The translations under genes were made by a program, and so were the position numbers. A stretch of DNA of 63,827 bases from a virus. The stretch covers positions 1 to 63,827 of IMG/VR virus record IMGVR_UViG_3300033153_004497; one strand, 5' to 3'. The notes under the pieces are model-generated. The model saw only the letters and a list, made by a program, of their open reading frames with translations. It searched no databases and had not been told where the DNA came from. Positions 59,712 to 61,714 of the stretch are shown in pieces (positions within the stretch are counted from its first letter, which is position 1; the number at the start of each line of letters is the position of its first letter).

Positions 59712-59921
59712 TTAATCGTCTTCGAATGTGAAGACACCCGTTTCAAGATCAAGTTCAGGAAAGAAATCTGCAATTACTTCATCGACATCACCAAAGCCTT
59801 TATTCGCAGCACTGGTTATGTCGGGGGGAAGGGGGTCATTTTCTACCAAAGAGGAATCAATAAAATCACCATTCTTATCAACAAGGAATCCATCCCCATC
59901 TGCATTTCTTATTTTAGCCAT
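59712..59921 (-). CDS. Small acidic head-region protein, 69 aa
   Basis: Starts MAKIRNADGDGFLVDKNGDF, acidic end. It directly follows the MuF-zeta gene in transcription (stop and start share a base). If the zeta domain is active this small protein might be its inhibitor, though it has no recognisable antitoxin features. Function unknown. Confidence 0.55.
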   Translation of the reverse strand: MAKIRNADGDGFLVDKNGDFIDSSLVENDPLPPDITSAANKGFGDVDEVIADFFPELDLETGVFTFEDD

Positions 59922-61714
59922 TAGAAATTACCTCCAACAAATTTTGGTTCTGTTCCACGGGGAACATGATTGTCCCACATCCCCCATTTACTAAATTGTG
60001 AACGCAGTTGATCGAAAACTTTTTCATTCTCAATATTCGCTAGGATTACATCCATTGGAACATATCTTTGTGTTTCTCCTAACGCTCTTTGGATTGCCCG
60101 TGCAGCAGCTTCATGTCTGGGCAAATACATGTAGTAGCCTTCTATCTGATAGCCATTGGGATTCTGCAAACTCTTCTTAGTAAATTGCCCTACCCGCTTG
60201 ATAGCAGAACCAGAACTTTTCAAAGTCATATCATGAACCACATTGAGATTCATCCGCTTTGCAATCTTTGTGATTTCATCAAACAAATAGGAAGATTCTT
60301 CATGTAATTCAAATGCGTTCCAACCTTTATATTCTGGCATCAATTGCTTTATCGCATCTGAGTCCAACACCAAAACCCTTCGACCATCTACAGGCCCATT
60401 CTTATCGGTCAACCAAGATTTGCCAGAACCACCACGCCCACCCAGAACCGTGTAAGTAGGTGTCTCTCCTTTTAGTGCTTTGGATTTACTGATACCGTTA
60501 CTGAGGATATTAGAACGATCTAAAACTTTTGTTTTTTCATTGAAACCAAGAATAACTTTTCTCGTAATCTCTCTGTGAAGAAGTTGCCTTTCAGCAGTCC
60601 AAACCTTATTGGCATTTCTGAATCTCGCAGCAGTGGTTTCAATACCTTCCAATAATTCTTGATAGCCCCGAATAGCAGCAGCATCCGCATCAGACAACCC
60701 TGCTATTATTGCTTCTTCTGTAACTGCTGTGTCTCCCGCAATATAATAATCTTCAGCAGAAGTAAAAGGTTTATCAGGGATTTTTTGTCCGGGGCGCAAT
60801 GGATTTGGTTGTTGTGTGTGCGTTCCTTTCGGTGCTCTAACTGCTTTCAGTAATCCCCTGCATCTAGGATGATATGGGGGAGTGTCCCAACCTTTCGCCC
60901 TCATTTGATCTGGGGTCATCTCCGTTAAATCTTTTATTCCCTGTTTGCTTTGCTTAGGAAAGGGGGCAAGGATTTTCAAATCATTGGGGTCAGTTATTCT
61001 TATCTGGGTATCCAGTTTTGCCAAAGCAGGGGCAACCGAAAATCTTTTCCCGTCCATCCTTCTGCACACAGGACAAATCCTGCTATCTAATTGTTCGTTC
61101 ACAACATAGTGGGTAATCCCACGGGCAGATGCTTCAGCTACGAAACCATAATTTGCCATTCGTGACATCTGAAGGGAGGAAGCAACACTTATCATACCTC
61201 CCCCAATATTTCCCGCACCTGTGGTCAAAGCATTTCGTAGATTGATGGGGTTGATTTTCTGAACGGTAACAGAATCACCTTTGTTAAATTCGGCTTCCTG
61301 TTGTTCTTCGAAGGTGAGTCTTGCTTCTAGTTTTACAGCTAACTGCATAAACCGTTTTCTAACGGTAATCATTGCCTGATCTAATTGGATTTGATATTGG
61401 TTGGTAGCAATGGGAACCAGACTCAAAGCATCTTTGTTTAAGACAACTTCAAGATCAAGGGTAGTGCCATTGATTAACGCACCCCCGAAAACCAAACCTG
61501 TTTTAAGAAGTGTGTTTATAGATTTGACTTTACCCCGATACAAAAGAGAAGTATTGATGGTATCAACTATCTCAGCCACTTTCGCTAAATCGTGGGCTTC
61601 AATAGCCTTTTCAATCTGGGGGATAATGCGCCTTTGAATCCTATTCCATCTGGGCAGAATTAATGCTTCAAGAGATGCTTCCAAATCAAGATAGGCTTCT
61701 ACTTTGACTACCAT
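59921..61714 (-). CDS. MuF-type head protein fused to a zeta-toxin-like kinase
   Basis: 597 aa. The first about 300 residues form a MuF (minor head) domain, with CPVCRRMDGKRF (C214, C217) and a closing HPRCRGLL near 285. A linker follows, and then residues from about 420 show a zeta-toxin-like kinase: P-loop GGRGGSGKS (425-433), LDSDAIKQLMPE, HEESS, NLNVVHDMTL and RYVPMDVIL. Zeta kinases phosphorylate cell-wall precursors such as UDP-GlcNAc and stop growth. Located between portal and protease, so it is probably a virion protein. Confidence 0.78.
   Translation of the reverse strand: MVVKVEAYLDLEASLEALILPRWNRIQRRIIPQIEKAIEAHDLAKVAEIVDTINTSLLYRGKVKSINTLLKTGLVFGGALINGTTLDLEVVLNKDALSLVPIATNQYQIQLDQAMITVRKRFMQLAVKLEARLTFEEQQEAEFNKGDSVTVQKINPINLRNALTTGAGNIGGGMISVASSLQMSRMANYGFVAEASARGITHYVVNEQLDSRICPVCRRMDGKRFSVAPALAKLDTQIRITDPNDLKILAPFPKQSKQGIKDLTEMTPDQMRAKGWDTPPYHPRCRGLLKAVRAPKGTHTQQPNPLRPGQKIPDKPFTSAEDYYIAGDTAVTEEAIIAGLSDADAAAIRGYQELLEGIETTAARFRNANKVWTAERQLLHREITRKVILGFNEKTKVLDRSNILSNGISKSKALKGETPTYTVLGGRGGSGKSWLTDKNGPVDGRRVLVLDSDAIKQLMPEYKGWNAFELHEESSYLFDEITKIAKRMNLNVVHDMTLKSSGSAIKRVGQFTKKSLQNPNGYQIEGYYMYLPRHEAAARAIQRALGETQRYVPMDVILANIENEKVFDQLRSQFSKWGMWDNHVPRGTEPKFVGGNF

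What the first reader, a model, noticed from the sequence alone, without database searches (positions are those of the whole stretch)
59921..61714. MuF head protein fused to a zeta-toxin-like kinase
Sequence shows one reading frame with a MuF domain and a P-loop kinase with the zeta motifs (GGRGGSGKS, LDSDAIKQL, HEESS, RYVPMDVIL). Established knowledge: zeta toxins phosphorylate UDP-GlcNAc, and MuF proteins can carry toxin domains. Inference: the domain may be carried in the virion and enter the new cell with the DNA, or serve against rival phages. A small acidic gene (59712) directly downstream could be a partner.
Basis: partly seen in the sequence, partly recalled or inferred. Interest (0 to 1): 0.75.

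Follow-up and report, generated by a model that had tools for sequence, protein, structure and literature searches.

The report
Phage head protein carrying a toxin-like kinase
An uncultured phage has fused to an internal head protein (MuF) a kinase of the kind used in bacterial growth-arrest toxins, followed at once by a small acidic gene that may restrain it; the fusion itself was described in 2017, but what it phosphorylates and the role of the small gene remain open and testable.

Summary
ORF 59921-61714 (-) encodes 597 aa: a MuF minor-head core (about 1-299) and a zeta/PNK-type kinase module (about 319-597). AlphaFold models the kinase well (pLDDT 92). Its best solved-structure matches are AvrRxo1 (a NAD 3'-kinase) and zeta toxin, effectively tied. 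Catalytic residues K432, D453 and T497 are kept in diverse relatives, and the domain is under purifying selection.

The 69-aa acidic gene overlaps the kinase stop codon. All 15 viral contigs found with it either carry it directly after such a kinase or (one) begin at it. Related phages whose portal-MuF-protease block lacks the kinase also lack the gene, so it is probably the kinase's partner. That it is an antitoxin is inference.

The UDP-GlcNAc step is not supported here: two zeta residues that read UDP are not conserved, whereas motifs shared with AvrRxo1 are. Kinases of this clade are fused to MuF, portal and protease proteins, and twice to the anti-CBASS enzyme Acb1. That points to an effector carried in the virion and acting early in infection.

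MuF-zeta fusions were reported by Iyer et al. 2017, so this is a new member of a known kind, with a probable partner gene and an open substrate.

The parts
59921..61714 (-). MuF-kinase fusion protein, 597 aa
60818..61714 (-). MuF core, residues 1-299, with CPVC...PPYHPRCRG signature
   Evidence: homologues in Vibrio and Stenotrophomonas phages
59924..60760 (-). kinase module, residues 319-597: N-terminal helical extension with WTAERQLLH motif plus P-loop kinase
   Evidence: AlphaFold2 pLDDT 92.4, pTM 0.88; Foldseek and VIA matches to AvrRxo1 and zeta; profile alignment
60356..60421 (-). Walker A lysine K432 (60419-60421) to catalytic-base aspartate D453 (60356-60358)
   Evidence: align with zeta K46 and D67; invariant in 41 kinases
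60224..60226 (-). T497, equivalent of zeta T118 (phosphate contact of the substrate)
   Evidence: at least 90% conserved in 41 kinases
59712..59921 (-). 69-aa acidic partner gene, TAATG overlap with the kinase stop; proposed antitoxin or chaperone
   Evidence: absent from kinase-less relatives
61719..63677 (-). portal protein, directly upstream
59035..59634 (-). XkdF-type head maturation protease, downstream
57854..59038 (-). head-region protein with acidic middle (possible scaffold; context only)
   Evidence: phrog_27672, function unknown; syntenic in relatives
56816..57790 (-). major capsid protein (context)
   Evidence: phrog_1623; best match Rhodobacter phage RcZahn capsid, 52%

Best explanation
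A MuF minor-head protein has acquired at its C-terminus an active phosphotransferase of the zeta/AvrRxo1/PNK superfamily. The MuF core probably places the protein inside the head at the portal, and the kinase probably enters the new host with the DNA. There it would transfer the gamma-phosphate of ATP to a sugar hydroxyl of an abundant small nucleotide metabolite, slowing the host or blunting its defences early in infection. The translationally coupled 69-aa acidic protein probably binds the kinase and keeps it harmless while virions are built. Shown: fusion, head-gene position, fold, intact catalytic residues, purifying selection, co-occurrence of kinase and small gene. Inferred: packaging, ejection, enzymatic activity, substrate, neutralisation.
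For: Fold. Catalytic residues invariant or at least 90% conserved in 41 diverse kinases. dN/dS mostly about 0.1-0.3 for the kinase (one close pair 0.37), about 0.1 for the MuF core. Head-gene context: portal upstream, protease and capsid downstream. The same kinase clade recurs fused to MuF of another family (L029, PSS2), to portal (L039, L042, L062) and to a DUF2213 protein (L040), or as the ORF right after portal (L031, L073, L074, L080). C-terminal exchange on the same MuF core: Stenotrophomonas DLP3 carries a ParB-like region there instead. Small gene: among 15 viral contigs that encode it (one beginning at it), it lies directly after the kinase wherever the upstream side is present. It is absent from portal-MuF-protease or portal-protease blocks of V-YDF132, KarBoss, DLP3, P11VFA, RcZahn, RcKickapoo, RHph_Y1_11 and SM1. 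A similar ORF follows the sister kinase of L029, whose MuF is of another family. Precedents: AvrRxo1:Arc1 has a downstream small antitoxin (PMC4938570); [quoted passage not shown]
Against: No experimental proof of packaging, activity or toxicity. Kinases set between portal and the next head gene (L030, L073, L080, L087) have no small partner, so a restraint gene is not universal. AlphaFold gives no confident fold for the small protein (pLDDT 63). Its absence from relatives may reflect one gain event on this branch. Host and substrate are unknown.
Confidence: 0.6

Rival explanations
1. True zeta mechanism: the injected domain phosphorylates UDP-GlcNAc and weakens the cell wall, helping DNA entry or lysis (the Iyer 2017 proposal).
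For: Zeta_toxin Pfam E 2.5e-15; D453 = D67, T497 = T118, K499 at R120; zeta is the best sequence relative in the PDB.
Against: Ribose and uracil contacts E100 and T128 fall on D479 (D/E/K in relatives) and R507 (variable). AvrRxo1, with equal structural similarity (Z 16.4 vs 15.6), does not phosphorylate UDP-GlcNAc to a significant extent.
Confidence: 0.22
2. Virion-delivered counter-defence enzyme: it phosphorylates NAD or a nucleotide signal and so disarms nucleotide-based immunity.
For: The same kinase module is fused to anti-CBASS Acb1 in L087 (E 1.5e-23) and in the best BFVD match A0A6J5LTH6; it shares ERxxLH and HxESS motifs with the NAD 3'-kinase AvrRxo1; ddrB-ParB polyvalent genes lie beside spirochaete copies.
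Against: Association only; no defence target known; the window protein itself lacks Acb1.
Confidence: 0.25
3. MuF polymorphic toxin used by lysogens against competitors, with the acidic gene as immunity protein (Jamet 2017).
For: MuF plus toxin-like C-terminus plus downstream small ORF.
Against: No tyrosine integrase or serine recombinase in the window or in the 89-kb relative, whereas MuF toxins were reported only from temperate phages. Both records may be incomplete, and other carriers of the kinase do have integrases.
Confidence: 0.15
4. The small acidic gene is a head accessory protein unrelated to the kinase, and the kinase has a structural or assembly role.
For: Location in the head cluster; some kinase ORFs lack a small partner.
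Against: Small gene and kinase are present or absent together in the relatives examined; catalytic residues are kept throughout.
Confidence: 0.15

Closest known systems
MuF-zeta kinase fusions of phages (Iyer et al. 2017, PMC5512222, Fig. 5F)
   Same: MuF domain fused to zeta-like kinase, encoded among head genes, proposed to act on delivery
   Different: That paper's text treats it in a brief passage; the coupled small gene, portal and Acb1 fusions and the substrate-site comparison are added here
Zeta/PezT toxins (1GVN, 3Q8X, 2P5T)
   Same: P-loop kinase fold, Walker A lysine, catalytic Asp, substrate-phosphate Thr
   Different: Uridine-reading residues not conserved; extra ERxxLH extension and HxESS motif; small gene downstream, not an upstream epsilon antitoxin
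AvrRxo1:Arc1 (4Z8Q, 4Z8U), NAD 3'-kinase with downstream antitoxin
   Same: Top structural match over 211 residues; shares WxxERxxLH and HxESS motifs; gene order kinase then small partner
   Different: Not MuF-linked; Arc1's KExFD...ExxYY motif is absent from the 69-aa protein; substrate not tested
MuF polymorphic toxins (Jamet et al. 2017, PMC5576092)
   Same: MuF N-terminus, toxin-like C-terminus, small ORF downstream
   Different: Neither zeta nor kinase is mentioned in that survey's main text; no integrase seen in this phage
Cyanophage PSS2 minor head protein (GQ334450)
   Same: MuF and zeta kinase in one chain, about 32% identity over part of the kinase
   Different: 1499 aa with further unassigned regions

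Membership tests
MuF / SPP1 gp7 minor head proteins | MuF profile match with CxxC and PPxHPxCR signature | tested here: met
   Signature present; PHROG minor-head matches E 1e-5 to 3e-4; TIGR01641 E 3.2e-6; Pfam alone below cut-off
MuF / SPP1 gp7 minor head proteins | gene next to portal in the head module | tested here: met
   portal 61719-63677, protease 59035-59634, capsid 56816-57790
Zeta toxin (PF06414) | profile match above cut-off and zeta fold | tested here: met
   56.9 bits vs 22.3; Z 15.6 to 1gvn over 194 residues
Zeta toxin (UDP-GlcNAc kinase) | UDP-GlcNAc contact residues D67, T118, R120, E100, T128 | tested here: inconclusive
   D67 and T118 kept, R120 is Lys, E100 is Asp but variable, T128 is Arg
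Zeta toxin (UDP-GlcNAc kinase) | phosphorylation of UDP-GlcNAc | not testable with these tools
   needs enzyme assay
epsilon/zeta toxin-antitoxin module | upstream epsilon or PezA antitoxin | tested here: not met
   portal gene lies directly upstream; the small gene is downstream and has no Pfam, PHROG, NCBIfam or confident PDB match
AvrRxo1-like kinases | fold plus ERxxLH extension and HxESS motif | tested here: met
AvrRxo1-like kinases | NAD 3'-phosphorylation | not testable with these tools
   needs enzyme assay
AvrRxo1:Arc1 module | Arc1 motif KExFD(x25-27)(Y/L)ExxYY in the partner | tested here: not met
   motif absent from the 69-aa sequence by inspection
MuF polymorphic toxin (Jamet 2017) | carried by a temperate phage | tested here: inconclusive
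   no PF00589 or PF00239 in window or 89-kb relative, but records may be fragments

The most novel reading that the evidence does not exclude
Phages load onto their portal/MuF proteins an AvrRxo1-type kinase that phosphorylates NAD or a nucleotide immune signal at the moment of entry, a counter-defence device exchangeable with Acb1, and encode a dedicated small acidic inhibitor to survive making it.
Probability: 0.2. Interest if true: 0.8.

Novelty: new member of a known kind. Interest (0 to 1): 0.45.

Why it matters
MuF-kinase fusions are a published prediction that, in the papers read here, had no substrate, no partner and no test. This case gives a compact, well-modelled domain, a candidate neutralising gene, and a comparative hint (Acb1 co-fusion, AvrRxo1-like motifs) that the enzyme may act on nucleotides rather than cell-wall precursors. 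One enzyme assay on one protein would decide between these readings.

Tried and rejected
Scanning bacterial genomes with the full protein found no relative; the kinase alignment found 24 loci.

MuF-core search of viral contigs found only relatives that also carry the kinase, so C-terminal exchange had to be looked for in cultured phages.

Folding the small protein gave no usable model, and PDB, PHROG, Pfam and NCBIfam searches with it gave nothing.

A search for relatives of the L075 small gene in viral contigs found none. Relatives of the L029 small gene gave only itself.

The kinase tree supports the L029 plus window clade (98/97) but leaves the deep order open.

Bias to keep in mind: many relatives were fetched with the patterns GGRGGSGKS and PEYKG[WY]N, so conservation of those two stretches is partly built in. 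The conservation of D453 (last residue of the DxD motif), T497 and the two arginines was not selected for.

Full report
What is there. The ORF 59921-61714 on the minus strand is open over 597 codons. Residues 1-299 are a MuF core. Residues 319-597 are a kinase module. The two are joined by a short polar stretch (about 295-318...PKGTHTQQPNPLRPGQKIPDKPFT). The gene follows the portal (61719-63677) by 4 bases and precedes an XkdF-type protease, a further head-region protein and the major capsid protein. The phage belongs with Rhodobacter, Vibrio, Stenotrophomonas and Rhizobium siphoviruses by capsid (up to 52% identity) and portal (43%), so a Gram-negative host is likely, though unproven.

The MuF assignment. 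No single model bearing the MuF name is strong: Pfam is below cut-off and TIGR01641 gives E 3.2e-6, also below cut-off. But several PHROG minor-head families agree (E 1e-5 to 3e-4), and phrog_30193 (function unknown) covers residues 33-292 at 2e-28. The CPVC...PPYHPRCRG signature is intact, and the same core in cultured Vibrio and Stenotrophomonas phages sits right after portal.

The kinase. Zeta_toxin scores 56.9 bits. AlphaFold2 with 41 relatives gives pLDDT 92.4 and pTM 0.88. Foldseek and VIA place it with AvrRxo1 (Z 16.4, 211 residues, rmsd 2.9) and zeta (Z 15.6, 194 residues, rmsd 3.0), clearly above polynucleotide kinases (Z 12.2); AvrRxo1 and zeta are tied. K432 and D453 correspond to zeta K46 and the catalytic base D67, and T497 to T118. 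K432, D453 and two arginines (R543, R550) are invariant in the alignment of 41 kinases, and T497 is at least 90% conserved. The domain evolves under purifying selection, with dN/dS mostly 0.1-0.3 and 0.37 in one close pair, against about 0.1 for the MuF core. It is therefore a maintained, probably active enzyme.

Substrate. In the zeta-UNAG structure, E100 contacts the UDP ribose, T128 the uracil and R120 the phosphates (PMC3062530). In the profile alignment these fall on D479 (D, E or K in relatives), R507 (variable) and K499. The catalytic chemistry is kept but the uridine reading is not. Conversely, the phage kinases share with AvrRxo1 a WxxERxxLH motif in the N-terminal extension and an HxESS motif after the catalytic Asp, neither aligned in zeta (distribution). 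AvrRxo1 phosphorylates NAD at the adenosine 3'-hydroxyl and does not use UDP-GlcNAc to a significant extent (PMC5087710). I therefore leave the substrate open and lean slightly to an adenine dinucleotide or another nucleotide.

The acidic gene. It starts inside the kinase stop codon. The family was found in 15 viral contigs; it lies directly after the kinase in all whose upstream side is present, and one contig begins at the gene. Related phages give a natural comparison. The block is portal-protease in RcZahn, RcKickapoo, RHph_Y1_11 and SM1, and portal-MuF-protease in V-YDF132, KarBoss, P11VFA and DLP3 (DLP3 with a ParB-like C-terminus). In the four with MuF, the gap to the next gene is 8 to 87 bases, leaving no room for the acidic gene. 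Kinase and acidic gene thus appear together. The sister kinase clade (L029, two kinase copies, a different MuF family; support 98/97) is followed by a 77-aa ORF that resembles the acidic protein better than nearly all shuffles for three of five family members (0, 3 and 6 of 2000), but not for the other two. Two other small-ORF families follow other branches: L031/L074/L075, and spirochaete L077/L078. Kinases placed between portal and the next head gene (L030, L073, L080, L087) have none, so the partner is not obligatory.

Wider context. Members of the kinase clade are fused to portal (L039, L042, L062), to MuF (L019, L029, PSS2), to DUF2213/DUF3560 (L040), or are encoded right after portal (L031, L073, L074, L080) or after ddrB-ParB polyvalent genes (viral contig L045, spirochaete L078, Clostridiaceae L088). 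In a Rhodospirillales contig (L087) and in the best BFVD match, the kinase shares a chain with the anti-CBASS enzyme Acb1. This is the pattern of polyvalent proteins delivered on invasion.

Comparison with what is known. Iyer et al. [quoted passage not shown] Jamet et al. 2017 describe MuF toxins with downstream small ORFs in temperate phages and do not mention zeta or kinases in the main text. No tyrosine integrase or serine recombinase was found in the window or in an 89-kb relative, while other kinase carriers have integrases. The finding is a new member of a known kind; the partner gene, the Acb1 link and the substrate doubt are the parts worth following.

Limits. No experiment bears on packaging, ejection, activity or toxicity. 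Relatives were partly selected by conserved kinase motifs. The window is a linear virus record that may be incomplete, and its host is not identified.

Noticed in passing
L087:4513-7977: 1154-aa ORF in a Rhodospirillales contig joins anti-CBASS Acb1 (res 164-305) and the same kinase module (zeta match at res 566-704).
   Followed up: partly
L029:1623-4055: One MuF protein carries two complete kinase copies in tandem, both with intact motifs.
   Followed up: partly
L045:5739-6058: Two tandem similar small ORFs follow a kinase gene (mutual E 1e-11).
   Followed up: no
L016:1856-3193: Stenotrophomonas phage DLP3 has the same MuF family with a ParB-like C-terminal region, a C-terminal exchange on one head protein.
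   Followed up: partly
L030:6089-7792: The head gene downstream of a kinase ORF seems to carry a HINT (intein-like) insertion in the middle (weak Pfam Hint_2, E 1e-4).
   Followed up: no
window:59035-59634 versus L004 and L006: Between the small gene and the protease, L004 and L006 carry an extra stretch (MPLPTPNTGESRDKFIARCM...) that the window lacks.
   Followed up: no
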